NCBI RefSeq assembly: GCF_030646155.1
Contig: NZ_JAUTDN010000001.1
Span: 186,001 to 250,000, forward strand
DNA: 64,000 nt
Direction of reading: 5' to 3'
Source of the DNA: Conexibacter sp. CPCC 205762
GTDB lineage: Bacteria > Actinomycetota > Thermoleophilia > Solirubrobacterales > Solirubrobacteraceae
Translations under genes and position numbers: made by a program
Shown: positions 31,363 to 46,641 of the stretch, in pieces
How positions within the stretch are numbered: position 1 is the first letter of the stretch
Layout of the letters: each line of letters opens with the position of its first letter
The notes under the pieces: generated by a model
Database searches by the model: none
Seen by the model: only the letters and a program-made list of their open reading frames with translations
What the model was told of the DNA's origin: nothing

Positions 31363-34300
31363 TCAGCTCGCGGGAGCGACGGCCGCCTGCTCGACGTGGG
31401 AGCCGTCGCGGCCCTTGACGACGAGCAGCTGGGCCGGGACGCGCTGGCGCAGCTCGGCGACGTGGGAGACGATCCCGACGGCGCGGCCGCCCTCGCGCAG
31501 CTGGTCGAGCACGTCGAGCACCTCGTCGAGCGTGCGCTCGTCGAGCGAGCCGAAGCCCTCGTCGATGAACAGCGTCTCGAGGCGGCTGCCGCCGGCGTCG
31601 GCGGCGACGACGTCGGCGAGGCCGAGCGCGAGCGCGAGGCTGGCGAGGAAGGTCTCGCCGCCGGACAGCGTCGCGGGCGAGCGCTCCTGCCCGGTCCAGC
31701 CGTCGACGATCTTGAGGTCGAGGCCGCCGCGCTTTCTGCCGCGGGCGCCGTCGTCGGCGTGGATCAGCGCGTAGCGGCCGTTGGACATCCGCTCCAGCCG
31801 CTGCGTCGCCGCCTCCGCGACCTCTTCGAGCCGTGCCGCGAGGACGTAGGCGGAGAGCCGCATCTTGAGCCTGTTGGCGGGCGAGCCGCCGTCGACCAGG
31901 CCGGCCAGCTCCTTGATCAGCCGCTCGCGCGCGGCGACCGGGGCGAGCTGCGTCAGCGCGCTGTCGAGCGCGCCGGTGAGGCTCGTGACCTCGGCGAGGC
32001 GGCGCTGCTCGACCGTGTTGCGCCCCTGGCACGACTCGTCGGCGGCGGCCGCGCTGTCAGCCACGGCTCGCAGCGCCGGCAGGTCGGGCGCCGGCTGCGC
32101 GACGGCGGCCTGCAGGACCGGGTCGGCGACGATCGCGGTGCGGCTGGCAACGCCCTCGTCGTAGCCGCGCAGCTTGCGCTCCAGCTCCTGCAGCGCGGCC
32201 GCGTCGCGGATCGCCGCGGCTGCGGCGGTGACCGTCTCGAAGCCGGCGGCGTCGACCGCTCTCGCGACGGCGGTCGCGGCCTCGTCACGCGCGACGGCGG
32301 CGCGCGCGGCCTGCTCGCGCGCGGCAGCGGCGGCGTCGGCCGCGCGCGCGTGCTGCGTGAGCTGCTCCACGCGGGCGGCGATCGAGTCGGCCTCACCGCG
32401 GGCGCCCGCGACCTGCTCGCGCTCGCTGGTGAGCGCCGCAGCGCGCTCGGCGTGCGCGGCGCGAGCGCTGGCGGCGGCCTGCTCGGCGTCGCGGCGCTGC
32501 TGCTCGTGCGCGGCCGTCGTCGTGGCGAGCGCGGCCAGCTTGCGCTCGACGTCGGCCAGCGCGGCGGCTTCGGCGCGGGTCGTCGTGAGCTGCTCGGCGC
32601 GTGCCGTGGCGTCGGCCCGCAGCTCCTCCACGCTCGCAGCGCCCGCGACCGCCTGCGCCGCCGCCAGCGCGCTCGCGTTCGCCGCCGCCGCCCGCTCGGC
32701 CTCCGCCCGCAGCTCGGCCGCGCCCGCCTGCGCCTCCTGCGCCGCGCGCTCCTGGTCGGCGAGCGAGCCGCTCGTGTCCGAGGGGGGCGCGGGGGCGGCG
32801 TCTGGGGCCGCGGCGTCCGCGGCGCGAGCAGCGGCATCGAGCGCGGCGGCGTCCGCGGCGGAGGCGGCGGCATCGAGCGCGGGGGCGGCGTCCGCGGCGG
32901 AGGCAGCGGCGAGATGCGCCGGCGCGGGATGGTCGAGGGCGCCGCAGACGGTGCACGGCTCGCCGGGGACGAGGCCGCTGGCCAGCTCGGCGGCCATGCC
33001 GGCGAGGCGGCGCTCGCGCAGGTCGAGCCAGCGCTCGCGGGCGGCCTGCTCGCTGCCGACGGCCTCACGCACCTGTGCATCGAGTCGGATCTGCTCTGCT
33101 GCGCGACGATCCCGCTCAAGCGCTTGCTCGGCTCGCTCGGCGGCGGCTTTCGCCTCGACTTCGAGCGCCTCGACGCGGTCGCTCGCGCGGCGGGCGACGA
33201 CGAGCGCGCCGTCGAGCTGGACGCGCTCGCCGGCGGCGGCTTCGAGCGCCGCGGACGCGCTGGCGGCACGGGCGTCGGCGTCCTCGGCGTCGGCGAGCAG
33301 CCTCGCGAGCGCCTGCTCGGAGGCGTCGAGCCGCTGCTCGACCGCGACCAGCTCCCCGAGCGCCCCCGCCCGCGTCCGCAGCTCGCCCGCATGCGCACGC
33401 AGCGCGACGGCGGCGGGGTCGGCGTCATCGGCGGGCGCGCGCAGCGCGGCGGCGGAATCGGCGTCGTCGGCGGGGGCGGGCTCGGCCGCCGGCGCCACCT
33501 CCGACACGACCTCCGGACGTTCGACCCTTTCAGGGGTCAAACGTCCGCTGCTCGGGAGGTCGAAGAGGGTCAGCTCGGCTTCCGGCTCGGGCTCGGGCTC
33601 AGGCGGCGCGGCGGGCGGCGGCGCGTCGACGCGAGCGGCGGCTGTCGGCGGCGCGTCGGCGGCCGGCGCATCCGCGTGAGCGGCGGGCGGCGACGCGTCA
33701 GCGCTCGCGGCGGCCGCCTCCGCAACGGCACGCGCCTCGTCGTCCAGCGCGTCCCAGGCGGACGCTGCCGCGCGGTCGGCGGTGGCGGCGTCGGCGGCGC
33801 GGGTGCGGGCCGCCTCCAGCGCGGGGGCCACGGGGGCGGCGGCGCGAGCGGCGCGCAGCTCGCGCTCGGCCTCGTCGCGGGCGTCCTGGCGGGCGCGCCA
33901 CGACTCCAGCTCGCGCTGCGCTCTGGCGTGGCGCTGCTGGCGCTCGGCCAGCTCAGTCGCGGCTGACAGGGCGGCGTCGGCGGCGGCGCGGGCGGCGCGG
34001 GCGCTGGCGGCCGACTCCTCCGCGGTGACCGCTCCGGCCTGGGCGCCGACGCTGAGGCCGCCGGCCCATTCGCGCAGCCGCTCGGGGTCGAGCTCCCAGT
34101 CGGCGGGCGGCTCCTCGCCAGACGCCTGCGCCAGCCGCGCGACGACGTCGCGGACCGCGCCGAGCTGGCCGTGCAGCTCGATCCGGGCGGTTCTCGCGCG
34201 ATCTCTCAGCCACCACTCGACGGCCGCGAAGCGCTCGGTGCCGAACAGCCGCTCGAGCAGCTTCCAGCGCTCGTCGCTGCCGGCGCGCAGGAAGGAGGCG

Positions 34301-34782
34301 AACTCGCCCTGCGGCAGCAGCACGACCTGGCAGAACTGCTCGCAGCTCATCCCGAGCGGATCGGACAGCTCCGCTCTCGCCTCGTCAGGCCGGGCGGCGA
34401 CCGTCACCCACTCGCCGTCGCGCAGCTCCTGGACGGTGCAGCCGTGGCCCTCCTCGGTGATGCCCTCGCCGCGCACCTTCGGCCGCTCCTGCTTCGGGCG
34501 GCGGACGATTCTGAAGCGGCGGTCGCGCAGCGTCACGTCCAGCTCGACCTCTGTGCGCGCCTCGGGTGACGCATGGTCGGAGCGGAGACGGGCGTCCTTC
34601 GCGCGGGCGCCCGGGACCTCGCCGTAGAGCGCGAAGCAGACCGAGTCGAGCAAGGTCGTCTTGCCGGCGCCGGTGTCGCCCCGCAGCAGGAACAGCCCGG
34701 CGGCCGAGAGCGCGTCGAAATCGACCTGCTCGGTGCCTGCGAACGCCTGGAAGGCGGTCACGCGAAGGTGGTGCAGGCGCAT
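31363..34782 (-). CDS. sbcC: SbcC exonuclease subunit (SMC-like ATPase)
   Basis: 1139 residues. Walker A GDTGAGKT near residue 35, a long Ala-rich coiled coil, the zinc hook CTVC near residues 608-611, the ABC signature LSGGETFLASLALALG and Walker B LFIDEGFGSLDE at the C-terminus. With SbcD it cuts hairpins and processes DNA ends. Two low-complexity insertions are unusual: a Pro/Ala/Glu-rich stretch (about 355-450) holding a palindromic element, and Ala-Asp repeats beside the hook. TAGCCT lies 6 nt before the ATG, so it may be transcribed separately from sbcD, 144 nt upstream. Confidence 0.92.
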   Translation of the reverse strand: MRLHHLRVTAFQAFAGTEQVDFDALSAAGLFLLRGDTGAGKTTLLDSVCFALYGEVPGARAKDARLRSDHASPEARTEVELDVTLRDRRFRIVRRPKQERPKVRGEGITEEGHGCTVQELRDGEWVTVAARPDEARAELSDPLGMSCEQFCQVVLLPQGEFASFLRAGSDERWKLLERLFGTERFAAVEWWLRDRARTARIELHGQLGAVRDVVARLAQASGEEPPADWELDPERLREWAGGLSVGAQAGAVTAEESAASARAARAAADAALSAATELAERQQRHARAQRELESWRARQDARDEAERELRAARAAAPVAPALEAARTRAADAATADRAAASAWDALDDEARAVAEAAAASADASPPAAHADAPAADAPPTAAARVDAPPPAAPPEPEPEPEAELTLFDLPSSGRLTPERVERPEVVSEVAPAAEPAPADDADSAAALRAPADDADPAAVALRAHAGELRTRAGALGELVAVEQRLDASEQALARLLADAEDADARAASASAALEAAAGERVQLDGALVVARRASDRVEALEVEAKAAAERAEQALERDRRAAEQIRLDAQVREAVGSEQAARERWLDLRERRLAGMAAELASGLVPGEPCTVCGALDHPAPAHLAAASAADAAPALDAAASAADAAALDAAARAADAAAPDAAPAPPSDTSGSLADQERAAQEAQAGAAELRAEAERAAAANASALAAAQAVAGAASVEELRADATARAEQLTTTRAEAAALADVERKLAALATTTAAHEQQRRDAEQAAASARAAHAERAAALTSEREQVAGARGEADSIAARVEQLTQHARAADAAAAAREQAARAAVARDEAATAVARAVDAAGFETVTAAAAAIRDAAALQELERKLRGYDEGVASRTAIVADPVLQAAVAQPAPDLPALRAVADSAAAADESCQGRNTVEQRRLAEVTSLTGALDSALTQLAPVAARERLIKELAGLVDGGSPANRLKMRLSAYVLAARLEEVAEAATQRLERMSNGRYALIHADDGARGRKRGGLDLKIVDGWTGQERSPATLSGGETFLASLALALGLADVVAADAGGSRLETLFIDEGFGSLDERTLDEVLDVLDQLREGGRAVGIVSHVAELRQRVPAQLLVVKGRDGSHVEQAAVAPAS
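33514..33547. repeat. dispersed palindromic element, copy 1 (inside sbcC)
   Basis: Arms CGGACGTTCGACCC and GGGGTCAAACGTCCG match at 13 of 15 positions around a loop with TTTCA. A second element with the same core occurs in the helicase gene at 40506-40544. Both keep the reading frame and fall in low-complexity or inter-domain protein segments. Confidence 0.65.
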
Positions 34783-34788
34783 CCGATC

Positions 34789-34794
34789 AGGCTA
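34789..34794 (-). promoter_or_regulatory. -10 element of sbcC
   Basis: TAGCCT on the minus strand, 6 nt before the start codon, without a Shine-Dalgarno. The 144-nt gap between sbcD and sbcC otherwise shows only GC-rich sequence. Confidence 0.4.
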
Positions 34795-34926
34795 TCGAGC
34801 GATCGTGACGGCGCCGCTCCGCGCTCGCCGCACACTGCGGGAAGAAGAGCGCCGACACGGCGCAGCTGCGCGCTGGCCGGAGCGGCGCGCTGATGTGGCG
34901 GGCGCGCGACAAGCGACCGGCGTCGC

Positions 34927-36075
34927 TTACGCGACGGCTTCGGCGACGCGACGGGCGGTGAGCGCGTCACGCAGCAGCGTCAGCTCCTCGTCGTCGGCGT
35001 CGCTGCCGCGCACGTCGGCGACGAAGCGGCGCAGCAGCTCGTCGTCGTCCAGGCCGCGCAGGCGCTGGTAGGAGTCGGCCGGCGAGCCGGCGTCGCCCTG
35101 TGGGTCGAAGGCGAGCACGACCGCATGCGGGAAGCGCGCCCGCAGCCGCTCCATCGCGTCGCCGGGGCGGACCGGATCGGTCAGCGTCGCCTGCACCCAC
35201 GCGCCCTCGCGGTCGCGCAGGCGCGGATCGGCGAGCAGCTCGTCGAGCGTGCCGCGCAGCGTCGCCAGCGGACGCGGGACGGGGACCGGGATCAGCGTCA
35301 CGTCGGCGGGCGATGCGGTGTCCACGATCGCCAGCGACTTTCTCTGCGTCGCCTCGCTGAAGGAGAAGGCCAGCGGCGAGCCGGCGTAGCGGCCCGCGCC
35401 GCCGCCGACGATCTGCGGCCCGTGCAGATGGCCGAGCGCGACGTAGTCGGCGCCGGCGAAGGCACCCGGCGGCACGTGCGCCGCGCCGCCGACGGCGAGA
35501 TCGCGCTCGCTCTCCGAGCCGGCCGCGCCGGAGACGAAGGCGTGCGCCATCACGATCACCGGCGCGCCGCCCGCGGCAGCGCCCGCGCCGCGCGCCGCGA
35601 CGTCCGCCCGCACCCGCGCCATCGCCGCCCCGGTGACGGCCGCGTGCGAGCGCTCCTCGACCCCGAGCGGCTCGCGCACGAGATCGGGCTCCAGGTAGGG
35701 GAGGGGATAGACGAGCGCGCCGCCGACAGCAACCGGCGTCCCGATCTGAAGGGGATCGGTCGCGATGTGGACGCGCGCCCGCGCGAACAGCTCCGCGCCG
35801 AAGCCGAGCCGTGCGGCCGAGTCGTGGTTGCCGGAGATGACGACGACCGGCGCGACCTCGGCCAGCCGCGCCAGCGCCTCCGACGCCAGCCGCACCGCGT
35901 CGACCGGCGGCAGCGCGCGGTCGTAGAGGTCGCCGGCCAGGAGGATCCCGTCCACCTGCTCGTCGCGCGCGACCGAGACCGCGAAGTCGACGAACTCCGC
36001 CTGTGACCGCAGCAGGTCCTCGCCGTGGAAGGCGCGGCCGAGGTGCCAGTCGGCGGTGTGGAGGAAACGAGCCAT
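34927..36075 (-). CDS. sbcD: SbcD nuclease subunit (metallophosphoesterase)
   Basis: 382 residues with the ordered phosphoesterase motifs TADWHLG, LAGDLYDRA, SGNHDS, AHAFVSG and GHLHGPQ. A capping domain follows and contacts SbcC. GGAGGGGCG just before the ATG is a good ribosome site. It is the Mn-dependent nuclease of the SbcCD complex, which opens hairpins and degrades palindromic or blocked ends. Interestingly, its partner gene contains a palindrome itself. Confidence 0.93.
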   Translation of the reverse strand: MARFLHTADWHLGRAFHGEDLLRSQAEFVDFAVSVARDEQVDGILLAGDLYDRALPPVDAVRLASEALARLAEVAPVVVISGNHDSAARLGFGAELFARARVHIATDPLQIGTPVAVGGALVYPLPYLEPDLVREPLGVEERSHAAVTGAAMARVRADVAARGAGAAAGGAPVIVMAHAFVSGAAGSESERDLAVGGAAHVPPGAFAGADYVALGHLHGPQIVGGGAGRYAGSPLAFSFSEATQRKSLAIVDTASPADVTLIPVPVPRPLATLRGTLDELLADPRLRDREGAWVQATLTDPVRPGDAMERLRARFPHAVVLAFDPQGDAGSPADSYQRLRGLDDDELLRRFVADVRGSDADDEELTLLRDALTARRVAEAVA

Positions 36076-36094
36076 CGCCCCTCCACGATGAAGG

Positions 36095-36122
36095 GCGGGC
36101 CGGACGGAATCGCCCGGCCCGC
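36095..36122 (-). terminator. terminator-like hairpin after the PQQ-cytochrome gene
   Basis: Perfect 9-bp arms GCGGGCCGG (36095-36103) and CCGGCCCGC (36114-36122) with a 10-nt loop lie between the PQQ dehydrogenase stop and sbcD start. On the minus strand a pyrimidine-rich CCCTTCATC follows. It probably insulates sbcD from the upstream gene. Confidence 0.55.
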
Positions 36123-36139
36123 ATCGCGCGCGCGAGGCG

Positions 36140-38446
36140 CTATCTGACGAGCGTCGTCACGTACGTCGAGACCGCTCTGATCTCGTCGGCGCTGAGCGTC
36201 CCTCTGAACGCCGGCATTCCGCCGCCGCCGTTCTCGACCTGTCTCTGGACCGCCGCCATGTCTCTCGCGGACGGGATCGTCGTCAGGTCGGGTCCGCCGT
36301 TGCCGCCTCTGGCGTCGGCGCCGTGGCAGACCGAGCAGTTGTCGGAGAAGACCTGGGCGCCGTTGGCGGCCGCGCCGCCGGCGCTGTTCTCCGACGACTC
36401 GGTCGTTCTGTCTCTGTCGTTGGACGGCTGGACGGTCGTTCTCTCGGTCTCGACCTGGCCGGCCTCGCCGGCGTGCTCGATCGCTCTCGCGGCGGCGCCG
36501 GGCGCGACCGGCCCGATCTTCCCGTCGAGCGAGAAGAGCCACAGCGAGTCGCCGTGGGAGGTGCCCGCGAGCGAGTTGCCGGCGGCGTAGAACGCGATCA
36601 TCTGTCTGCCTCTGTACTCGAAGATCGCGGGGGTCGAGTTGGCGCCGGCGCCGGTCTGGAATCTCCACAGCTGCTCGCCGGTGGAAGCGTTGAAGGCCTG
36701 CAGCTCGCCGTTGTTGCGGCCGACGAAGACGAGGTTGCCGGCGGTCGTCGTCGTGCCCGAGTAGCAGGCGTCGTTTCTGCCGGTGAATCTTCTCGTCCAG
36801 GCGATCTCGCCGGTCGTCACGTCCTGCGCGACGAGCAGGCCGGGGTAGGTGCCGAAGCCCTGCAGCGTGAAGACCGACGAGAGGTACTGTCTGCCGACGA
36901 CCGGTCTCGTCGGGCCCTCGGTGAGGTAGCCGGCGAAGGTGTCGGCGCCGCATATGTAGACCATGTTGGTCGTGCGGTTGAACGACGACGGCGGCCAGTT
37001 GGTCCCGCCCGACGGGCCGGGCTTGATCACCTTCGGGATGTTCGTGTACGGCTCGTAGATCGATCTCGCCGCCTGCACGGTGACTCTTCTTCTGCCTCTC
37101 GTCTGCGCGTCGAGGATCGCCTGGATCGTCTGGATCTCCTCGGGCCGGATCTCGTGCGGCGCGAACGGCGGGTAGTCGGGGATCGGCTGCGTGTCGGCCG
37201 TCTCCTGGATCTCCTTGTCCTGCGTCACCGGCATGTCTCTGATCCCGTGCAGCGGTCTGCCGGTCTCGCGGTCGAGCATGTAGAGCCAGCCGGTCTTGGC
37301 CGGCTCCGACAGGCCCTTGACCTCTCTGCCGTCGATCTCCGCGTCCCACAGCACGACGGGCGACGGCATGTCGTAGTCCCAGATGTCGTGTCTGACCGCC
37401 TGGAAGTGCCACTTGACCTTGCCGGTGGCCGGGTCGAGCGCGACGATCGAGGCGCCGTAGAGGTTGTCGCCTCTGCGGTTCTTGCCGTTGAGGTCGGGCG
37501 CGACGTTGCCGGTCGAGAGGTACATCGTGTTCAGCTCGGGGTCGACGGCCGGCGTCTGCCAGATCGGCGCGCCGCCGTTTCTCCAGGCGTCGTTGCTCGG
37601 CCAGGTGTCGCTGCCCTCCTCGCCGGGCGCGGGAATCGCCCACCAGCGCCAGTCGAGCTTGCCGGTCTGCGCGTCGACCGCGGTCAGGCGGCCGCGGATG
37701 CCGTACTCGCCGCCGGAGACGCCGGTGTAGACGCGGCCGTTGTAGTAGAGCGGCGCGTTCGTGAGCGTCTCGCCGTCTCTCCAGTCGCCGACCGAGTACG
37801 ACCAGTTGACGGTGCCGGTCGCCTGGTCGAGCGCGACCAGTCTGCCGTCGAGCTGGCCGACGTAGACCTGACCGGCGCCGATCGCGACGCCGCGGCTGGT
37901 CCAGCCGCAGCAGATCGTGTCGATGTCCTGCGGGATGTTCGACTCGTACTTCCACAGCCGTCTGCCGTCGGAGACGCGGTTGGCGAAGACGTCGTCGTTG
38001 CCGGTGACGGTGTAGATCACGCCGTCGTAGACGATCGGCGTCGCCTCGCCGCTGTACTTGGCGGCCGTGCCCGATCTGTCGAAGCGGGCCTCCCACAGGC
38101 CTCTCAGCTGACTGACGTTTCTGTCGGTCACCTGCGTGAGCGGCGAGTAACGCTGGTTGTAGGTCGAGCCGCCGTTGGTGAGCCAGTTCTCGCGCGGCAG
38201 CGCGGCCAGCTCGGCGCTGGTGAAGGCGGGGGCGGGGTTGATCGGCGAGTTGGCCGCCTCGGCGGCGGTCTCGGGGTTGGTGTCGTTCGGTCTCACCGGC
38301 GCCGTCACGGTGACGGTCGTCGTCTTGTCATGCCCGGTGAAGTGACCTATCAGGTACCCGGCGAGGAGCGAGACGCCGAACCCGACCGCCACCGCGGTCG
38401 AGACGACGATGCCCCAGAAGAGCCCACTGCCTCCGTCGCTGCCCAT
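36140..38446 (-). CDS. membrane-anchored PQQ-dependent alcohol dehydrogenase with C-terminal cytochrome c
   Basis: 768 residues from the ATG at 38446, chosen over a GTG at 38491 for its GGAG site. An N-terminal membrane anchor (GLFWGIVVSTAVAVGFGVSL) precedes the eight-bladed quinoprotein: vicinal disulfide TICCGW (about 178-179), Ca-site Glu in GGEYG, catalytic Asp in GDNLY, HDIWDYD and repeated TGKxxW docking motifs. The C-terminal cytochrome c has CSVCH (about 705-709) and an axial Met in GMPAF (about 744). It oxidises alcohols or aldehydes outside the membrane and passes electrons through heme. All hallmarks are intact, unlike the two lipoproteins at 5030-8370. AGA codons are frequent. Confidence 0.9.
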   Translation of the reverse strand: MGSDGGSGLFWGIVVSTAVAVGFGVSLLAGYLIGHFTGHDKTTTVTVTAPVRPNDTNPETAAEAANSPINPAPAFTSAELAALPRENWLTNGGSTYNQRYSPLTQVTDRNVSQLRGLWEARFDRSGTAAKYSGEATPIVYDGVIYTVTGNDDVFANRVSDGRRLWKYESNIPQDIDTICCGWTSRGVAIGAGQVYVGQLDGRLVALDQATGTVNWSYSVGDWRDGETLTNAPLYYNGRVYTGVSGGEYGIRGRLTAVDAQTGKLDWRWWAIPAPGEEGSDTWPSNDAWRNGGAPIWQTPAVDPELNTMYLSTGNVAPDLNGKNRRGDNLYGASIVALDPATGKVKWHFQAVRHDIWDYDMPSPVVLWDAEIDGREVKGLSEPAKTGWLYMLDRETGRPLHGIRDMPVTQDKEIQETADTQPIPDYPPFAPHEIRPEEIQTIQAILDAQTRGRRRVTVQAARSIYEPYTNIPKVIKPGPSGGTNWPPSSFNRTTNMVYICGADTFAGYLTEGPTRPVVGRQYLSSVFTLQGFGTYPGLLVAQDVTTGEIAWTRRFTGRNDACYSGTTTTAGNLVFVGRNNGELQAFNASTGEQLWRFQTGAGANSTPAIFEYRGRQMIAFYAAGNSLAGTSHGDSLWLFSLDGKIGPVAPGAAARAIEHAGEAGQVETERTTVQPSNDRDRTTESSENSAGGAAANGAQVFSDNCSVCHGADARGGNGGPDLTTIPSARDMAAVQRQVENGGGGMPAFRGTLSADEIRAVSTYVTTLVR

Positions 38447-38585
38447 GCCTGACTCCGTTCCTCCGCCCGCCGCCGCTGCCGCGGCGCTCACGGGTCTCGC
38501 CTACCCGTTCCGATGTCTTCGGGCGACCGAAGGAACTGGAATCAGGCGCGTCGCCGCTCGTGCGCGGCGGGCGGCCGGCGCCGGG

Positions 38586-38591
38586 TACGGT
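38586..38591 (+). promoter_or_regulatory. -10 element of the helicase gene
   Basis: TACGGT ends exactly 7 nt before the ATG at 38599, with no Shine-Dalgarno. The 152-nt divergent region with the PQQ gene shows no other clear signal. Confidence 0.4.
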
Positions 38592-38598
38592 CTGCGCG

Positions 38599-41500
38599 AT
38601 GACGGCGACCTCCGACGGCTGGTCCGGACTGGCGTTCACGCCCGCGTGGCGGCACTACCAGCAGCTGGCGCTGGCGGCCTTCGACGCGGACGTGGCGGCG
38701 CGGCGGCGGGCGACCCACATCGTCGCGCCGCCGGGGTCGGGCAAGACGGTGATCGGGCTTGAGATCGCGCGGCGGCTGGGGCGGCCGGCGCTGGTGCTGT
38801 GCCCGACGAGCGCGATCCGCGCGCAGTGGGGGAGCGCGCTGGCGCTGTTCGGCGGGGGCGACGCGGTGCCGCTGCACGCCCACACGTACCAGGCGATCTG
38901 CCAGACGGCGGACCCGGGCGGGGCGCTGGCCGAAGCGGCGCTCGGGCGGCTGGCGGCGGAGCGGGCGCGCGACACGGCGGTGGGGGTCGACGCGGCGCGA
39001 GCGGAGATGGAGGCGTGGGAGGGCGCCGCGCGCAGACGGCTGCAGCGCGACGTCGCGACCGTGACGGCATCGCTCAAGCGCGAGATCGCGCGCGGCGGCG
39101 AGCTGGGGCTGGCGGCGCACGACCTGCTCGGCGACGGCGCCCGCGCGCGGCTGGCGGAGCTGCAGGCGGCGGGCGTGCGGACGGTCCTGCTCGACGAGTG
39201 TCACCACCTCGTCTCGACCTGGGGCTATCTCGTGCGCGCGGTGATCGCGGCGCTCGGCGACGACGTGCACGTCGTCGGGCTGACGGCGACGAGCCCGGCC
39301 GACCTCAGCGGCGAGGAGGCCGTGCTCTACGACGACCTGCTCGGCGAGGTCGACTTCGAGATCCCCACGCCGGCGGTCGTCAAGGAGGGCTACCTCGCGC
39401 CCTACCAGGAGCTGGCGCTGTTCACGACGCCGCTGGCGAGCGAGCGCGCCTGGCTGCGCGAGCACCACGTCCGCTTCCAGGAGCTGCTCGACCGGCTGCA
39501 GACGCCGGCGCCGATCGGCAGCGCCGAGGAGGAGCTGTCGTTCGGCGCCTGGACGATCGCGCGGATGCGGTATCGGGACGCGGAGGCGGCGACGGCGTTC
39601 GCGGCGGCCGGCGACCCGGGCTCGGGCGCGGGCGCCGGTGGCGACGCAGCGGGTGTGGGCGACGGCGAGGACGCGGCTGACGCGGACGCGGCGGATGCCG
39701 GCGCCGGCATCGCAGGTGCGGGCGCAGCCGAGCCGGCGCGGCTCTCGTTCGCCGCCTTCGCCAAGCGCCAGCCGCGGCTCGCGCGCGCCGGGCTGCGCTA
39801 CCTCGCCTCGGGCGGGCTGGAGCTGCCGCCGGACGCGCCCCGCGGCGAGCTGACGCGCGCGCCGCTGGAGCTGGACGACTGGCTCGTGCTGCTCGACGAC
39901 TGGGCGCTGCGGTGCCTGCGCGCCCATCCCGGCGACGCCGCCGAGCGGCTCTGGCAGCAGCTCGCCGACGGCCTCGCCGACCTCGGCTACGCGCTCACCC
40001 GCCGCGGGATCCGCCCCGGCCGCGACGACCTCGACCGCGTGCTCGTCCACTCGGCCGCGAAGTCGCTGCTGGTGGTCGACGCGCTCGACGCCGAGCACGG
40101 CGTGCGCGGGGAGGCGCTGCGGGGCGTCGTGCTGTGCGACAGCGAGCGGCCGGCGCGCGCTCCGGAGTCGACCTCGCTGACGCTCGGCGGCGGGCTCGCG
40201 CTGCTGCGGGCGATCGCCGCCGACACGCGCACGGAGCTGCTCGCGCCGCTGCTGGTGACGGGCACGACCGTCGCGTGCGCGGTCGGCGACCACGCGCGCT
40301 GGCGCGAGGCGCTGGCGGCTGAGCTGCCGCAGCCGCTCGCCGCGCTGCTGACGGTCGAGCCGCTGCCGGGCGCGGGCGGCGACGTCCCGCTCGTGCGCCT
40401 CACCGCCGCCCACCCCGACTGGACCACCGCGACCTGGGTGCCGGCCGTGACGCGCGCCTTCGCCGCCGCCGGGGCGAACCTGCCGCAGGCCGGGGCGCAC
40501 GAGGACCGGACGATCGCACCCCTGTCAGGGGGTCGAACGTCCGGAGGTCGCGACGCGGAGCGCTGCGGGCGGGTGCTGATCGGGACGCGGGCGCTGCTGG
40601 GCGAGGGATGGGACTGCCCGCCGGTCAACGTGCTGATCGACTGCACGGCGGTCGCGGCGTCGGTCTCGGTGCGGCAGATGCGCGGCCGCTCGCTGCGGCT
40701 CGACCCGGCCGACGGCGGCAAGATCGCCTCCAACTGGGACGTCGTCTGCGTCGATCCGGAGCTGGAGCGCGGCACCGCCGACTACCAGCGCTTCGTCCGC
40801 CGCCACGCCCACCTGCACGCGCCCTGCGAGGACGGCTCGATCGAGTCGGGCGTCTCGCACGTCCACCCGCAGCTGTCGCCCTACGCGCCGCCGCCGGAGC
40901 AGCAGTTCACCGCCCTCAACCTCGCCGCCCTCGACCGCGCCGCCGGCCTCGACGCCGCCCGCGAGCGCTGGCGGATCGGCGCGCCCTACCGCGGGGAGGA
41001 GCTGCCGGTGCTGCTCGTCGCGTCTGCGTCATCCGCGCCAGGGTCTGCGTCATCCGTGCCGGCAATTGCAACATCCGCGCGCGGAAATGCGCAAGCCGCC
41101 CCGCGGTCTGCGTCAGACGCGCCCGCCTCTGCGTCAGCCGCGCCGTGGGCTGCGGCGTTCGCGCCCGCCCGTCCGCTGCCGTCGAGCGGGCGCGGGACGG
41201 GGAGCGGGGCGATCGTGGCGCTGGTGCTGGCGGTCGTCGCGGGCCTGACCGCGAATCCGGCGGCGGCGGTCGGGATGGTGTGCGTCGCGCTCGTGCTGGC
41301 GGGGCTCGCGCTGCACCAGGCGACTCTGCGCGGACGCGTGCCGACCGGACCGCCGGCGCTGGAGCGGACAGCGCGCGCGGTCGCGGAGGCGTACGTCGCG
41401 CTCGGCGAGATCGCACCGGCCAGCGCGGCCAGCCTCGCCTTCGCGCCGCGGCTCGGCGGGCGGATCCGCGTCGCGCTCGCCGCAGGCACGAGCGAGGAGA

Positions 41501-41949
41501 ACCGCCGCTTCGCCGGCGCGCTGGAGGAGGCGATCGGCAGCGCGACCGCACACCGCTACCTCGTCAGCCGCCCGCTCCCGCGCCCGGCGCCAGGCACTCG
41601 CGCCACCCGCCCGCGCCCGGCGCCGGATCATCGCGCCACGCGTCCGCGCCCCGCGTTCGCCACTCGCGCCACCGCCGCGCAGCCTCACTCCGCGCTCTCC
41701 ACCGCCATCCGCGCCGCCCGCGCGATCGCCGGGCGGGAGCAGCCGGAGCTGCACTGGCATCCGGTCCCGTCCGACCTCGGCCGCAACCGCGCCCGCGCGG
41801 ACGCCTATGCGAACGCCTGGCGCGCGCAGGTCGCGCCGGAGGGGACGCTTCAGTACACCGGCGGCAGCGAGGAAGGGCGCGCGCTGCTGCTGCGAGCAAC
41901 GGACGAGCCGGCCGCGTACGCGGCCAGCCATCGCACCCTCTGGGTCTGA
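38599..41949 (+). CDS. SF2 DEAD/DEAH-type helicase with C-terminal membrane segments
   Basis: 1116 residues. Helicase motifs: Walker A APPGSGKT (about 44-51), motif II as DECH (about 199-202), motif III GLTATSP, then GEGWDCP and motif VI QMRGRSLRLD (about 693). An Asp/Ala-rich loop interrupts the core near residue 350. After a Ser/Ala linker (about 810-860) two hydrophobic helices (GAIVALVLAVVAGLT and AAVGMVCVALVLAGLALH, about 869-910) are followed by a soluble domain with a Pro/Arg-rich insert and a conserved-looking WHPVPSDLGRNR end. Helicases tethered to a membrane are unusual. Type III restriction-like or defence functions are possible, but no nuclease or methyltransferase neighbour is present. 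Confidence 0.8.
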   Translation: MTATSDGWSGLAFTPAWRHYQQLALAAFDADVAARRRATHIVAPPGSGKTVIGLEIARRLGRPALVLCPTSAIRAQWGSALALFGGGDAVPLHAHTYQAICQTADPGGALAEAALGRLAAERARDTAVGVDAARAEMEAWEGAARRRLQRDVATVTASLKREIARGGELGLAAHDLLGDGARARLAELQAAGVRTVLLDECHHLVSTWGYLVRAVIAALGDDVHVVGLTATSPADLSGEEAVLYDDLLGEVDFEIPTPAVVKEGYLAPYQELALFTTPLASERAWLREHHVRFQELLDRLQTPAPIGSAEEELSFGAWTIARMRYRDAEAATAFAAAGDPGSGAGAGGDAAGVGDGEDAADADAADAGAGIAGAGAAEPARLSFAAFAKRQPRLARAGLRYLASGGLELPPDAPRGELTRAPLELDDWLVLLDDWALRCLRAHPGDAAERLWQQLADGLADLGYALTRRGIRPGRDDLDRVLVHSAAKSLLVVDALDAEHGVRGEALRGVVLCDSERPARAPESTSLTLGGGLALLRAIAADTRTELLAPLLVTGTTVACAVGDHARWREALAAELPQPLAALLTVEPLPGAGGDVPLVRLTAAHPDWTTATWVPAVTRAFAAAGANLPQAGAHEDRTIAPLSGGRTSGGRDAERCGRVLIGTRALLGEGWDCPPVNVLIDCTAVAASVSVRQMRGRSLRLDPADGGKIASNWDVVCVDPELERGTADYQRFVRRHAHLHAPCEDGSIESGVSHVHPQLSPYAPPPEQQFTALNLAALDRAAGLDAARERWRIGAPYRGEELPVLLVASASSAPGSASSVPAIATSARGNAQAAPRSASDAPASASAAPWAAAFAPARPLPSSGRGTGSGAIVALVLAVVAGLTANPAAAVGMVCVALVLAGLALHQATLRGRVPTGPPALERTARAVAEAYVALGEIAPASAASLAFAPRLGGRIRVALAAGTSEENRRFAGALEEAIGSATAHRYLVSRPLPRPAPGTRATRPRPAPDHRATRPRPAFATRATAAQPHSALSTAIRAARAIAGREQPELHWHPVPSDLGRNRARADAYANAWRAQVAPEGTLQYTGGSEEGRALLLRATDEPAAYAASHRTLWV
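40506..40544. repeat. dispersed palindromic element, copy 2 (inside the helicase gene)
   Basis: Arms CCGGACGATCGCACCCCT and AGGGGGTCGAACGTCCGG match at 15 of 18 positions around GTC. The right arm is nearly identical to that of the sbcC copy. It encodes a short loop (DRTIAPLSGGRTSGG) between helicase subdomains. Confidence 0.65.
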
Positions 41950-41959
41950 CCAGGAACGG

Positions 41960-42184
41960 CTAGGCCGTGCGGGGACCGGGCGGGTCCGTGGGGCGCAGCT
42001 TGCGGCGGGCGTCCTCGGCGGCGCGGCGGGCGAGGCGGCGCTGGGCCAGCTCGTCCATCGACGTCGGCGCGGGGGCGGCCGTCGCACGCACCTTGCGGGC
42101 GCGCTCGATCGCGGCGGTGATCTCGGCCGAAGAACGCCCGGCGTTCCGGCTCCAGGCCTCCGGCATGTCGCGGTCGGTTCGCAT
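41960..42184 (-). CDS. small charged protein of unknown function
   Basis: 74 residues (MRTDRDMPEAWSRNAGRSS at the start), highly charged, helical, with an Ala/Arg-rich coiled-coil-like C-terminus (MDELAQRRLARRAAEDARRK). It occupies the gap between the helicase stop and the divergent holin-fusion gene. No ribosome site or family was recognised; coding status is supported by composition and placement only. Confidence 0.5.
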   Translation of the reverse strand: MRTDRDMPEAWSRNAGRSSAEITAAIERARKVRATAAPAPTSMDELAQRRLARRAAEDARRKLRPTDPPGPRTA

Positions 42185-42268
42185 ACCCGCGGAATCGGCA
42201 GCCGCTCCACAATCCTTGAATCGAGACCGGAAAACCCGCAAACGTCCGTCCTGACGGCCGGATGCGCG

Positions 42269-44314
42269 ATGCTTCCGACCATGCGCAACGGATCGGTCCG
42301 CCGCCTGAGCCGACTCGCCTCGGTCACGCTGCTCGAAGCCCTGCTGCTGCTCCTGCTGGCGGAGGTCCTGCCCGGCTTCAACGCCGACGGCTTCGGCGCC
42401 GCGCTGGCGCTCGCGATCCTGCTCGGGCTCGCGAACGCGCTGCTGTGGCCGCTGCTGATCCGGGTCGCGCTGCCGTTCACGGTCCTGACGCTCGGCCTCG
42501 GCGCGCTGCTGCTCAACGGCGTCGTGCTGCTCGCGATCGCCGCGATCGACGAGGGCGTCCACGTCCACGGCGTCGGCACCGCGGTCGTCGTGACGCTGGC
42601 GCTGACGGCGCTGTCGGCGATCTCGAACGCGATCCTCGCGCTCGACTCCGGCGACCTCTGGTACCGCCATGTCGTCCGCCGGCAGCTGAAGCGGACCCAG
42701 CTGGCGGTCGACAGCGACGTGCCGGGGATCCTCTTCCTCGAGATCGACGGGCTCGCGCACGAGATCGCCCAGCGCGCGCTGCGCGACGGCAACGCGCCCG
42801 CGCTCGCCCGCTGGCTGCACGACGGCAGTCACGAGCTGAAGCGCTGGGAGACCGACTGGTCGTCCCAGACCGGCGCGTGCCAGGCGGGCATCCTGCATGG
42901 CAGAAACGACGACATGCCGGCCTTCCGCTGGTGGGAGAAGGAGCACGGCAGAGCGATCGTCACCAACCATCCGAAGGACGCCGCCGAGCTGGAGCGGCGC
43001 GCCTCGGACGGGCGCGGCCTGCTGCACGCCGACGGCGCCAGCCGCGCGAACATCCTCTCCGGCGACGCGCCCCACTCGCTGCTGACGATGAGCACCGTGC
43101 TCGACCGCAGACGCCAGGGCCGGCTCGGGCAGGACTACTTCGCCTACTTCGCCAGCCCGTACGGCGTCGCGCTGACGTTCATGCGCTGCCTCGGCGAGAT
43201 CGTCTCCGAGCGCTGGTCGGCGATCCAGCAGGTCCGCCGCGACGTGCGCCCGCGGATCGACCGCGGCGGCAGCTACCCGCTGATGCGCGCCTTCGGCACC
43301 GTGATCCAGCTCGACCTGCAGGTCGCCGCCGTCACCGCCGACGTGCTCGCCGGCCGCCCAGTCGTCTACACGACCTTCCTCGCCTACGACGAGGTCGCGC
43401 ACCACTCGGGCGTCGAGCGGCCGGAGACGCTCGCGGTGCTGCGGCGGGTCGACCGCGCGATCGCGCGGATCGCCGCCGCCGTCGAGCACGCGCCGCGGCC
43501 GTACAGACTGGTCGTGCTCGCCGACCACGGCCAGAGCCAGGGCGCGACCTTCCTGCAGCGCTACCACGAGTCGCTGGAGCAGCTCGTCAGACGGACCTGC
43601 GGCGACGGGTCGGTCGCTGCCGCGACGAGCGCCGAGTCCGACGAGAGCCGCGGCCAGCTGCGCGCCGGCATCGCCGAGCTGGGGACGCGGCCCGGCGTCA
43701 CCGGCAGGGCGGCGAGAAGGCTCGCGGACAGACAGACCGAGAAGGCGCAGCTGGAAGCGGGCGAGCAGCCGCCGGAGATCGCCGTGATGGCCTCCGGCAA
43801 CCTCGGCCTGATCTCGTTCCCGCGCGAGCCCGGCCGCGTCACGCTGGAGCAGATCGAGCAGCGTCGCCCGGGCCTGCTCGACACGCTCCGCACCCACCCC
43901 GGGATCGGCTTCGTGCTCGTCAGATCGGAGCGGGACGGCGCCGTCGTGCTCGGCGCCGACGGCCGTCACCTGCTCGACCGCGGCGTCGTCGAGGGGGAGG
44001 ACCCGCTGGCGCCGTACGGCCCGCGCGCCGCCGACCACGTCCGCCGCACCGACCGCTTCTCGACCTGCCCGGACATCGTCGTCAACAGCACCTACTGGGC
44101 CGACACCGACGAGGTCGCCGCGTTCGAGGAGCTGGTCGGCTCCCACGGCGGGCTCGGCGGCACGCAGGCGCAGCCGTTCGTGCTCCACCCGGCCGAGCTG
44201 CCATGGCCGGCCGCGCGCGGCGAGGACGTCGTCGGCTCGGAGACGATCCACCGCATCTTCTGCGGCTGGCTGCACCAGCTCGGCCACGACGGCTACGACG
44301 CTTTCACCGGCTAG
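42269..44314 (+). CDS. holin-like membrane domain fused to an alkaline-phosphatase-superfamily phosphodiesterase
   Basis: 681 residues from the ATG at 42269; a second ATG at 42281 is possible. Residues about 10-125 form a four-helix domain like the phage_holin_4_2/mycobacterial membrane family. The rest is a type I phosphodiesterase/nucleotide pyrophosphatase fold with LEIDGL, YDEVAHHSG and LADHGQSQGATF metal-binding segments. AGA codons occur in the soluble part, suggesting it may face outside. The architecture is known in actinobacteria, but the substrate (lipid or cell-wall phosphodiester) is unassigned. The stop overlaps the convergent MBL gene. Confidence 0.82.
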   Translation: MLPTMRNGSVRRLSRLASVTLLEALLLLLLAEVLPGFNADGFGAALALAILLGLANALLWPLLIRVALPFTVLTLGLGALLLNGVVLLAIAAIDEGVHVHGVGTAVVVTLALTALSAISNAILALDSGDLWYRHVVRRQLKRTQLAVDSDVPGILFLEIDGLAHEIAQRALRDGNAPALARWLHDGSHELKRWETDWSSQTGACQAGILHGRNDDMPAFRWWEKEHGRAIVTNHPKDAAELERRASDGRGLLHADGASRANILSGDAPHSLLTMSTVLDRRRQGRLGQDYFAYFASPYGVALTFMRCLGEIVSERWSAIQQVRRDVRPRIDRGGSYPLMRAFGTVIQLDLQVAAVTADVLAGRPVVYTTFLAYDEVAHHSGVERPETLAVLRRVDRAIARIAAAVEHAPRPYRLVVLADHGQSQGATFLQRYHESLEQLVRRTCGDGSVAAATSAESDESRGQLRAGIAELGTRPGVTGRAARRLADRQTEKAQLEAGEQPPEIAVMASGNLGLISFPREPGRVTLEQIEQRRPGLLDTLRTHPGIGFVLVRSERDGAVVLGADGRHLLDRGVVEGEDPLAPYGPRAADHVRRTDRFSTCPDIVVNSTYWADTDEVAAFEELVGSHGGLGGTQAQPFVLHPAELPWPAARGEDVVGSETIHRIFCGWLHQLGHDGYDAFTG

Positions 44315-45060
44315 GGCAGCTCGAAGGACGCGCCGGGAGCGAGCGTCTCGACGCGCGTGCCCGGCGCGACCCGCGCGACGGCGGTCGCGAAGTCGCCGGC
44401 CGGCGAGGTCAGCAGGCCGCCGTGGCGGCGGGCGAGGCCATAAGGGAGATAGGTGCCCCAGTGGATCGGGATCGCGACCCGCGGGCGCACGAGCGCGACC
44501 GCGCGCGCCGCGCCGCTCGGGTCGAGGTGGCCGGGGCCGAGTGACGGGCCCCAACCCCAGATCGGCACGAGCGCGACCTCGACGCGACCGCGCAGCTCGC
44601 CCATCCGCTCGTCCAGGTCGGTGTCGCCGGCGAACCAGATCCCCTCGACCAGGTAGCCGAGCGCGTCGAGCTGCGGCGAGCGCGGCCAGCGTCTCGTCGG
44701 GTGCCAGGCGGGGACGACCTCGACCTCGGCCGCGCCGGCGCGCAGCCGCACGCCGCTGCCGACCTCGCGGACCGCGCCGAAGCCGAGCCCGCCGACGAGC
44801 TTGCGGCCGCCGAGCGGCAGCACGACCTCGGTCTCGCGCGCGGCGAGCGTCCGCAGCGAGGGGCGGTCGAGGTGGTCGTGGTGCACGTGCGAGACGAGCA
44901 CCGCGTCGAGCGCCCCGAGCGCGGCGGCGTCCGGCGGCGCCGGCGCGTGCCGCCGCAGATGCGCGACCCGCCCGCGCAGCAGCGGATCGGTCAGCAGCCG
45001 CGCGCCGCTGTCGGTCTCGATCAGGACGGTGGCGTGGCCGAGCCAGGTGATCCGTCGCAC
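44311..45060 (-). CDS. MBL-fold metal-dependent hydrolase (UlaG-like)
   Basis: 249 residues from a GTG. WLGHATVLIE opening, metal site SHVHHDHLD, AGDTD and IHWGTY. This is the L-ascorbate-6-phosphate lactonase/NAPE-PLD-like branch of the metallo-beta-lactamase fold. It overlaps the end of the upstream spermidine-synthase-like gene by 40 nt, so the two are coupled. The substrate is not evident; phosphodiester, lactone or RNA have all been found in the fold. Confidence 0.87.
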   Translation of the reverse strand: MRRITWLGHATVLIETDSGARLLTDPLLRGRVAHLRRHAPAPPDAAALGALDAVLVSHVHHDHLDRPSLRTLAARETEVVLPLGGRKLVGGLGFGAVREVGSGVRLRAGAAEVEVVPAWHPTRRWPRSPQLDALGYLVEGIWFAGDTDLDERMGELRGRVEVALVPIWGWGPSLGPGHLDPSGAARAVALVRPRVAIPIHWGTYLPYGLARRHGGLLTSPAGDFATAVARVAPGTRVETLAPGASFELP

Positions 45061-46058
45061 GCGCCCACTCTCGCAGGCGGCGACGCGGTGCGCAGCGGGT
45101 CGGCCTCTGGGGCGGGCGCGTCGGCGGGCTGCGGCGGGGACGCGGCGCGCAGCGGATGAGCCTCCGGCGCGGGCGCGTCGGCGGGCTGTGCGGGCGGCTC
45201 CGGATCGCGGAACGGCCGCGCGCCGCCGAGCCAGCGCGTCAGCTCCTCGCCGCTGACGGCCAGCTCGGGCACGCCGCCGCGCAGCGCCCGCCGGCCCAGC
45301 TCGGCCAGCGGCAGCAGGCCGGCGGCGGCGCCGAAGACGACGACGTTGCCGCCCTGGCGGCCTCTGATCGTCTTGCGCGTCGCCATCACCGCGGCCTGCT
45401 CGAAGACTTCGGCGGCGGCCGCCGCGACGCCGCGCGCGACCTCCAGCGGCGGCACGTCGATCACGTTCGCGGCGAACGCGCCGCCCGGTCGCAGCGCCCG
45501 CCGCGCGGCGGCGACGAACTCCAGCGTCGTCAGGTGCGACGGCACGTTCGTCCCGTGGAAGGCGTCGAGCACGACGAGGTCGGCGCTGGCCGGGTCGCGC
45601 CGCTCCAGCAGCTCGCGCGCGTCGAGCACGCGCACGCGCAGCCCGCGCTCGCTGCGCAGCCCCAGCTCGGCGCGCGCCAGCTCGACCAGGCCCGGGTCGA
45701 TCTCCGCCACCTCGTTGCGCGCGCCCGGCCGCGTCGCGAGCACGTAGCGCGGCAGCGTGAAGCCGCCGCCGCCGAGATGGACGACGTCAAGCGGCTCGCC
45801 GCGTGGCGCCAGCAGGTCGCAGAGGTCGGCGAAGCGGCGCACGTAGGCGAAGTCGATCGCGGTCGGGTCGCGCAGGTCGACGTGCGAGCAGTCCTCGCCG
45901 TCGAGCCGCAGCAGCCGCCGCCACGGCCGGCCGGCCTCGGGGATCACCTGCGCGAGCGCGAACGGCGTCTGCAGCTCGACCGGCTCGCCGGACCAGCGGC
46001 GGTCGTCGCGCTCGTGACGCGCGCGAGAGCCGGAGCGGGAGCGGGAGCGCGAGGCCAT
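45021..46058 (-). CDS. spermidine-synthase-like methyltransferase-fold protein
   Basis: 345 residues from the ATG at 46058. A basic N-terminus (ASRSRSRSGSRARH) precedes the Rossmann core VVHLGGGGFTLPRYVLATR, the acidic EIDPGLVELAR and VLDAFHG. Actinobacterial relatives are annotated as fused spermidine-synthase-like proteins and often lack the polyamine-specific residues, so polyamine synthesis is uncertain. The C-terminal 60 residues are a Pro/Ala tandem repeat that runs into the MBL gene. The CATCCT 7 nt upstream may be a -10. Confidence 0.78.
   Translation of the reverse strand: MASRSRSRSGSRARHERDDRRWSGEPVELQTPFALAQVIPEAGRPWRRLLRLDGEDCSHVDLRDPTAIDFAYVRRFADLCDLLAPRGEPLDVVHLGGGGFTLPRYVLATRPGARNEVAEIDPGLVELARAELGLRSERGLRVRVLDARELLERRDPASADLVVLDAFHGTNVPSHLTTLEFVAAARRALRPGGAFAANVIDVPPLEVARGVAAAAAEVFEQAAVMATRKTIRGRQGGNVVVFGAAAGLLPLAELGRRALRGGVPELAVSGEELTRWLGGARPFRDPEPPAQPADAPAPEAHPLRAASPPQPADAPAPEADPLRTASPPARVGACDGSPGSATPPS
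45076..45189. repeat. 57-bp tandem duplication at the end of the spermidine-synthase-like gene
   Basis: Two diverged copies with 57-bp period encode QPADAPAPEAHPLRAASPP and a close variant. The unit is a multiple of three, preserving frame. It probably arose by slippage in the disordered tail. Confidence 0.65.
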
Positions 46059-46113
46059 TCCCAACAGGATGCACGACGGCGGCCGATCGGCCGCCGTCGA
46101 CGCGGGCGCCGGA

Positions 46114-46641
46114 TCAGGCGACGGCGGCGGCCGCGGCGACGGCGAGTCTGTCGGCGCGGTCGTTGAGCGCCTTGTGCTCGTGGTCGGAGCCGGTCTCATG
46201 ACCGCGCACCCAGTGCCAGCGGACGTTCTCGTGGCGGGCGATCTCGGCTTCGAGCGCCTGCACGAGGTCCTGGTTCTTGACCGGGTCGCCGCTGGCCGTC
46301 TTCCAGCCCTTGCGCTTCCAGCCGGCGATCCATCTCGTCATCGAGTTCAGCATCAGCTGCGAGTCGGTGACGATGCACACCTTGCTGCCGGCCGGCAGCG
46401 AGCGCATGCCCTCCAGCGCGGCGGTGTACTCCATCCGGTTGTTGGTCGTGGCAGGATCGCCGCCGGAGTACTCCAGCGGCGAGCCGCCGTCGGCGGGGAC
46501 GACGATCGCGGCCCAGCCGCCAGGGCCGGGGTTGCCCTTGCAGGCTCCGTCGGTCCACACGAGCGCCTCGCCGAGCAGCTGCTCGACGGGGGTCTCGACC
46601 GGTTTGCTTCGTCTGGGGCGGCGGCGGGGAGCTGGTGACAT
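46114..46641 (-). CDS. rnhA: ribonuclease HI
   Basis: 175 residues from the ATG at 46641. Catalytic carboxylates are in place: Asp31 (WTDGACKGNPGPGGW), Glu71 (NRMEYTA), Asp93 (VTDSQ) and Asp164 (NDRADRLA), with the basic-protrusion region WIAGWKRKGWK. A 20-residue basic N-terminal tail is extra relative to E. coli RNase HI. It degrades the RNA strand of RNA-DNA hybrids during replication. It ends 55 nt before the spermidine-synthase-like gene. Confidence 0.93.
   Translation of the reverse strand: MSPAPRRRPRRSKPVETPVEQLLGEALVWTDGACKGNPGPGGWAAIVVPADGGSPLEYSGGDPATTNNRMEYTAALEGMRSLPAGSKVCIVTDSQLMLNSMTRWIAGWKRKGWKTASGDPVKNQDLVQALEAEIARHENVRWHWVRGHETGSDHEHKALNDRADRLAVAAAAAVA

What the first reader, a model, noticed from the sequence alone, without database searches (positions are those of the whole stretch)
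38599..41949. Membrane-tethered SF2 helicase
A complete helicase core is followed by a low-complexity linker, two hydrophobic helices and a distinct C-terminal domain. Cytosolic helicases rarely have transmembrane anchors; this could be a defence protein acting on incoming DNA at the membrane, or part of a DNA uptake or segregation process. No partner gene is evident next door.
Basis: partly seen in the sequence, partly recalled or inferred. Interest (0 to 1): 0.55.

Follow-up and report, generated by a model that had tools for sequence, protein, structure and literature searches.

The report
Membrane-anchored DNA helicase family
The gene encodes a nucleic-acid motor (helicase) that appears to be pinned to the inner side of the cell membrane by a two-helix hairpin and ends in a domain that matched no described family; relatives occur in several distant bacterial groups, and nothing found points to virus defence.

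Summary
Observation confirmed. window:38599-41949 (+) encodes 1116 aa: an SF2 core (motifs I, II DECH, III, V, VI intact), a low-complexity linker, a hydrophobic helical hairpin (867-905) and a C-terminal domain. Nine other loci carry the gene. Of nine copies with a readable C-terminus (window included), six have the hairpin at the same place (window, Conexibacter, Paenibacillus, an unclassified bacterium, two gut contigs filed as phage). In those three a small gene overlaps the helicase start by 4 bases, a candidate stand-in. Between window and Conexibacter the hairpin is 28% identical (linker 45%, domains 62-82%) yet stays hydrophobic, like an anchor rather than a buried core. The C-domain matches no Pfam family or solved structure; in the plasmid and phage collections it occurs only with this helicase. 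Nearest relatives are XPB/RadD-type DNA motors, but curated cut-offs are not met. No defence system was recognised. Best reading: membrane-tethered DNA translocase in housekeeping; role unknown. Whole-genome search gave no answer, so sampling is small.

The parts
38599..41949 (+). gene for the 1116-aa membrane-tethered SF2 helicase
   Evidence: translation; orthologue L001 72% over full length
38635..39423 (+). first RecA-like domain (residues about 13-275) with Q-like motif, Walker A 38728-38748, DECH box 39193-39207, motif III 39280-39291
   Evidence: Pfam ResIII/DEAD; motif patterns; Foldseek match to XPB with a mostly low-confidence model
39436..40068 (+). middle insertion between the two motor domains (residues about 280-490), low-complexity around 336-380 in the window copy
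   Evidence: alignment A1; boundaries inferred by eye
40069..40803 (+). second RecA-like domain (residues about 491-735) with motif V 40594-40614 and motif VI 40675-40698
   Evidence: motif patterns; sub-threshold Helicase_C; boundary inferred; model confidence mostly low after residue 626
40999..41184 (+). Ala/Ser/Pro linker (residues 801-862) on a degenerate 21-bp tandem repeat at 41022-41165; 45% identical in L001
41197..41313 (+). transmembrane hairpin (residues 867-905): two hydrophobic helices, very short loop, both ends predicted cytosolic
   Evidence: two helices 867-885 and 887-910 in a low-confidence model
41314..41946 (+). C-terminal domain (residues 906-1116), conserved in the family, without Pfam or PDB match; holds a 33-bp repeat insert at 41577-41680 that is mostly missing from L001
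   Evidence: alignment A4

Best explanation
It is a membrane-anchored SF2 motor. The XPB/RadD-like core binds ATP and nucleic acid (probably duplex DNA) in the cytosol. A two-helix hairpin holds it at the inner face of the cytoplasmic membrane with helicase and C-terminal domain both inside. The C-terminal domain acts as the family's own adaptor, binding nucleic acid, a partner or both. Through a flexible linker the motor can work on DNA close to the membrane. The likeliest role is housekeeping, such as handling DNA (or membrane-near RNA) under stress or damage, not phage defence. SHOWN by sequence: intact motor motifs, the hairpin at a conserved place in six copies, a conserved C-domain seen only with this helicase in the plasmid and phage collections, absence of the hairpin in Rhodobacterales. 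INFERRED: actual membrane insertion, N-in/C-in topology, DNA as substrate, housekeeping role. In Rhodobacterales the overlapping upstream small gene may replace the anchor or recruit the helicase; this is inference from gene order alone.
For: Motifs I, II, III, V and VI found in all 9 copies with a whole core (motif V reads FLGQGWD in L008 and L014; only the C-terminal ORF of split L007 was scanned). Hairpin in 6 of 9 copies with a readable C-terminus. Hairpin identity window against L001 28%, while core is 78%, 741-800 82%, and the two halves of the C-domain 66% and 62%. Loops of 1-19 residues; 3-5 basic residues in the 20 after helix 2 in 6 of 6. C-domain queries hit only records that also carry the helicase: 4 of 4 plasmid records and 2 of 2 phage-collection records, the same as the helicase queries. 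Best profile and fold matches are XPB/RAD25 and RadD DNA-repair motors. Gene order shared with L001; no defence system recognised.
Against: Rhodobacterales copies lack the hairpin (3 of 3). The linker next to the hairpin is also fast-evolving (45% identity), so low hairpin identity is partly a property of the region. The first helix carries a charged residue in Paenibacillus (K) and in one gut copy (E); the flank before helix 1 has more acidic than basic residues in L005 and L006, and the L005 loop has two basic residues. Paenibacillus has an equally hydrophobic stretch inside the motor at 497, so hydropathy alone is not proof. Both structure models are low confidence (pLDDT 51.9 and 51.1), so burial of the helices is not excluded. 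Only one Foldseek match is within E 0.001 and TM-scores are low. No neighbour was seen in common between phyla in the loci read. Only ten loci were seen, because whole-genome search gave no answer.
Confidence: 0.55

Rival explanations
1. Anti-phage defence protein that attacks or blocks incoming DNA at the membrane.
For: SF2/ResIII motors are common in defence systems (recalled). Weak PADLOC hits: REase_III 0.0017, mad8 0.0046. Three of seven members match the Dnd restriction helicase TIGR04095, best 7.6e-8, and single members match restriction-enzyme models (positions not shown there). Patchy distribution in a small sample.
Against: No PADLOC match at 1e-5. 28 PADLOC families match somewhere among 47 window ORFs (25 listed). 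Of 20 ORFs scanned singly, five had hits: SbcC (17 models, mostly its N-terminal ATPase stretch), three ORFs hit by mad3 and mad8 models over part of their length, and one partial mad2 match; 27 ORFs were not traced. Gene order shared with L001. Annotated neighbours in Paenibacillus and Rhodovulum include no defence gene by name. No nuclease family in Pfam.
Confidence: 0.1
2. The hydrophobic pair is not a membrane anchor but two buried helices of a soluble multi-domain helicase.
For: Homologues without the pair exist; an isolated peak is not beyond chance in this Ala-rich protein; models too weak to decide.
Against: Hairpin sequence far less conserved than both flanking domains (28% against 62-82%, linker 45%) while hydrophobicity is kept: unlike a packed core. 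The pair beats 495-500 of 500 shuffles in six copies. Its absence in Rhodobacterales leaves the C-domain aligned, so it is not needed for that fold.
Confidence: 0.15
3. Membrane-near RNA helicase, comparable in place to the membrane-bound RNA degradosomes (RNase E/RhlB, RNase Y/CshA; recalled).
For: SF2 ATPases include RNA and DNA motors; membrane placement of RNA decay is known (recalled).
Against: Most sequence and fold neighbours are DNA-repair motors, though a few RNA-related chains are in the lists; no RNase directly beside the helicase was recognised in the loci read.
Confidence: 0.15
4. DNA uptake or chromosome segregation motor at the membrane (ComFA- or FtsK-like in role).
For: Location alone.
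Against: No competence or segregation gene by name next to the two annotated copies or among the Pfam-scanned neighbours.
Confidence: 0.05

Closest known systems
XPB/RAD25 helicase (archaeal and bacterial XPB; XPB-Bax1 structures PMC7293015, listing and start of abstract seen)
   Same: best sequence and fold relative of the motor: profile of seven family members 1.2e-16, Foldseek best E 5.1e-4 with low TM-score
   Different: scores 29.6 bits against an NCBIfam cut-off of 610; best profile stretch limited to about positions 16-114; has middle insertion, hairpin and C-domain
RadD (YejH) DNA repair helicase
   Same: among the fold matches after XPB (E 0.016 and weaker); one of seven members matches NF053632 at 0.00013
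   Different: window protein 9.6 bits against cut-off 720; RadD is soluble (recalled)
ResIII-type motors of restriction and Dnd systems
   Same: Pfam ResIII domain; member matches to TIGR04095 and restriction models
   Different: no nuclease or methylase family found in the protein; PADLOC not reached at 1e-5
HCV NS3-4A (viral SF2 helicase tied to a membrane by a cofactor; recalled)
   Same: works like: SF2 motor held at a membrane by hydrophobic helices
   Different: different family, anchor in trans, with protease; analogy only

Membership tests
SF2 helicase (DExH type) | Walker A, DExH, TAT, motif V and arginine-finger motif VI in order | tested here: met
   PPGSGKT 44, DECHH 199, LTAT 228, LLGEGWD 666, QMRGRSLR 693
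SF2 helicase (DExH type) | two RecA-like folds | tested here: inconclusive
   first domain modelled, fold match to XPB; second has pLDDT mostly below 50 after residue 626
SF2 helicase (DExH type) | nucleic-acid-stimulated ATPase or unwinding | not testable with these tools
   needs biochemistry
XPB/RAD25 | NCBIfam NF045503 cut-off (610 bits) | tested here: not met
   29.6 bits, best stretch residues 17-81
RadD/YejH | NCBIfam NF053632 cut-off (720 bits) | tested here: not met
   9.6 bits
Known anti-phage defence protein | PADLOC-DB model match | tested here: not met
   best E 0.0017; none at 1e-5
Type III restriction enzyme | endonuclease domain after the motor, Mod partner gene | tested here: not met
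   only motor/ATPase families matched in the window protein; C-domain matches no nuclease in Pfam; no methylase named among the annotated neighbours of L004 and L007
ComFA (DNA uptake helicase) | ComFA family signature and com operon | not tested
   no ComFA model was compared by name; no com genes named next to L004 and L007
XpaC (small upstream gene of Rhodobacterales) | Pfam PF10112 cut-off 29.8 | tested here: not met
   L008 copy 13.9 bits, E 0.054; L007 none at 0.1; L014 none at 0.001
Integral membrane protein | membrane insertion of the 867-905 hairpin | not testable with these tools
   supported only by hydropathy, conservation pattern and charge

The most novel reading that the evidence does not exclude
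An undescribed family of membrane-tethered SF2 DNA motors, defined by a C-terminal domain of its own, in which the tether is modular. Most lineages fuse a hairpin into the protein; Rhodobacterales have dropped it and instead translate the helicase together with a small upstream protein that recruits it. In Tritonibacter this pair lies beside DUF4178 and spermidine-synthase genes of the kind reported with PspA envelope-stress operons. The family would couple envelope state to DNA handling at the membrane.
Probability: 0.25. Interest if true: 0.7.

Novelty: new variant of a known kind. Interest (0 to 1): 0.5.

Why it matters
SF2 helicases are usually thought of as soluble. A family found across bacterial phyla in which the motor is built into the membrane, with a natural anchor-less branch for comparison, would make it directly testable what a membrane-fixed DNA motor is for. 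The C-terminal domain is unclaimed by Pfam and has no solved relative by sequence, so it is a clean target for structure work. In the two annotated records the motor part is called only 'DEAD/DEAH box helicase family protein'. Phrase searches of the open-access library found no paper on a membrane-anchored bacterial helicase by title or abstract start; most subscription papers are not in that library.

Tried and rejected
Considered and rejected: phage origin. Two homologues (L005, L006) are filed as 'Bacteriophage sp.', but both records are titled UNVERIFIED and carry no annotation; L005's neighbours read by eye as a pyruvate-formate-lyase-like gene, an amino-acid ABC transporter and a NUDIX gene, so host chromosome is likelier. 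Considered: XPB or RadD membership, failed on curated cut-offs. Considered: defence island, none recognised. Considered: a paper record of such a helicase; searches returned nothing relevant by title or abstract start (one returned no paper).

Both structure models too weak for the C-domain or the topology; no fold search was run on the C-domain model for that reason. Rfam none in 34000-46000. Paper searches on XpaC/TelA/TerB gave no helicase link in titles or abstract starts. L008 small-protein N-terminus as amphipathic membrane helix: moment 0.22, not convincing.

Rows dropped before counts: L002 (Thermomicrobiaceae) ends with its contig inside the hairpin region, so it is left out of hairpin and C-domain counts (one peak at 775). 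L007 (Rhodovulum) is split into two ORFs; only its C-terminal ORF entered the hairpin, motif and C-domain analyses, and it is not in the tree. L014 is 97.3% identical to L008, is not in A4 and was left out of the tree. In the A5 scan 47 ORFs were given of 54 called; one of the other 7 is cut by the window end and six looked doubtful by base composition. MAFFT misplaces the hairpin of L003 in A3, so the L003 hairpin identity is not used.
Full report
What is there. The gene at 38599-41949 (+) encodes 1116 residues. Pfam finds ResIII and DEAD at the N-terminus and a sub-threshold Helicase_C. The core motifs are present and in order, so the motor is probably active. The middle of the protein (about 280-490) is an insertion between the two motor domains. 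After motif VI come an Ala/Ser/Pro linker on a degenerate 21-bp tandem repeat, a hydrophobic pair at 867-905 and a C-terminal domain.

Is it more than chance. In an alanine-rich protein a single hydrophobic stretch means little: the best peak lies inside the range of shuffles. Two such stretches side by side are rare (1 of 500 shuffles). The strong evidence is comparative. Homologues were found in genome contigs (3 loci from 28 pattern-matched stretches), in plasmids (Paenibacillus, two Tritonibacter, Rhodovulum) and in the phage collection (2 records). With the window that makes ten loci. Nine reach the C-terminus; the tenth (L002) is cut off by its contig end.

Hairpin. Six of nine have the pair between the motor and the C-domain (window, L001, L003, L004, L005, L006). 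The loops are 1-19 residues long, and 3-5 basic residues follow helix 2 in all six, as for a hairpin with both ends in the cytosol. Not all fits: the flank before helix 1 is more acidic than basic in L005 and L006, the L005 loop has two basic residues, and helix 1 holds one charged residue in L004 and in L005. Three of nine, all Rhodobacterales (L007, L008, L014; two species), lack the pair while the C-domain still aligns or matches. An 8-sequence tree of the motor joins Tritonibacter with Paenibacillus and the gut copies (support 100 for that split; midpoint-rooted). Hairpin copies lie on both sides of the root, so loss in Rhodobacterales is the simplest history. Between the window and L001 the hairpin is 28% identical; the linker before it is 45%, the core 78%, residues 741-800 82%, the C-domain 66% and 62%. 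Hydrophobicity is kept, the letters are not. That is how an anchor behaves, not a packed core. Two structure models are too weak to add more (pLDDT 51.9 and 51.1); the first draws two helices at 867-885 and 887-910.

C-domain. Eight copies align and the ninth matches the profile. It matches no Pfam family better than E 0.05 (8 members scanned) and no PDB chain better than E 0.45. tblastn with the C-domain alone finds 4 plasmid records and 2 phage-collection records, the same that the helicase finds (against 42, 110, 43). In these two collections, at E 0.01, it does not occur apart from the helicase.

Relatives of the motor. A seven-member profile hits archaeal XPB/RAD25 first (1.2e-16), then TFIIH XPB, RadD and others. 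Foldseek gives XPB first (5.1e-4, the only match counted within 0.001, low TM-scores) and RadD among the next. The protein fails the curated XPB and RadD cut-offs. So it probably works like a DNA-repair type motor but is not filed in those families.

Surroundings. In the window the order is sbcC(-), sbcD(-), a PQQ dehydrogenase with cytochrome domain (-), the helicase (+), a small convergent ORF (-, about 41960-42184), a holin-like/phosphodiesterase membrane protein (+) and a metallo-beta-lactamase fold protein (-). In L001 an sbcD-like ORF (by eye; sbcC was not looked for) is adjacent to and divergent from the helicase, without the PQQ gene; the small ORF and the beta-lactamase-fold ORF are recognised by eye, the holin-phosphodiesterase by Pfam. 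So the place is shared by two related genomes. A PADLOC scan of 47 of 54 called window ORFs matches 28 families (25 listed), led by mad3 in five ORFs and mad8 in four. I traced 20 of the 47 singly: SbcC takes 17 models, mostly over its N-terminal ATPase stretch; three other ORFs match mad3 together with mad8 over part of their length; 45021-46199 has one partial mad2 match; fifteen have none. The repeated part-length ATPase-type matches do not make a defence system; 27 ORFs were not traced. Paenibacillus neighbours are envelope enzymes, transporters and NAD genes by their annotation. L003 is preceded by a rhomboid protease, L002 by an MFS transporter. I saw no neighbour shared between phyla; L005 and L006 neighbours were only read by eye.

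The Rhodobacterales branch. In L008 a 145-aa gene (7546-7983) overlaps the helicase start at 7980 by 4 bases; L014 has the same pair, and in L007 the annotated small gene overlaps likewise (8851 against 8848). tblastn finds this small gene in 3 plasmid records only, directly before the helicase in each. It is a weak, sub-threshold match to XpaC in one copy and should not be filed there. On the opposite strand upstream in L008 are two DUF4178 genes and a spermidine-synthase-domain gene. Ravi et al. 2024 (PMC11237479; author name recalled; passages read) describe DUF4178 and 7TM-spermidine-synthase genes in PspA-CesT/Tir operons; the term search found no 'helicase' in its main text. I did not see PspA in the L008 ORF list (no profile search was made for it), and the annotated list of L007 does not show this module (that table is incomplete). 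The envelope link therefore rests on one species.

Verdict. The membrane tether is probable (not proven) and optional. Defence is unlikely on this evidence. The best-supported mechanism is an ATP-driven DNA motor held at the inner face of the membrane, with a family-specific C-terminal adaptor, in a housekeeping role that remains to be found.

Noticed in passing
L008:7546-7983, L014:7546-7983, L007:8486-8851: Small conserved gene overlapping the start of the hairpin-less helicase in Rhodobacterales, found only there among plasmids; weak sub-threshold XpaC match in one copy.
   Followed up: partly
L008:3462-7291: Two DUF4178 genes and a spermidine-synthase-domain gene upstream on the other strand, resembling a PspA-linked envelope-stress module.
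   Followed up: partly
window:45021-46199: ORF that looks by eye like a spermidine-synthase/methyltransferase protein, about 3 kb after the helicase; partial PADLOC mad2 match. Not run against Pfam.
   Followed up: no
L007:8848-11183: The Rhodovulum helicase gene is split into two ORFs, so this copy is probably inactive; intact relatives exist.
   Followed up: no
window:41577-41680: 33-bp tandem repeat (3.2 copies) expanding a loop inside the C-terminal domain of the window copy; L001 lacks most of it.
   Followed up: partly
window:42269-44314: Membrane protein joining a Phage_holin_4_2 domain to a type I phosphodiesterase domain; conserved in L001.
   Followed up: no
window:36140-38491: PQQ-dependent dehydrogenase with C-terminal cytochrome c domain sits between sbcD and the helicase here but not in L001.
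   Followed up: no
window:41960-42184: Small convergent ORF of about 74 aa after the helicase; a similar one is seen by eye in L001.
   Followed up: no
L005, L006: Records filed as unverified bacteriophage; L005 carries what look like host chromosomal genes, so it is probably misfiled bacterial DNA, and L006 may be.
   Followed up: partly
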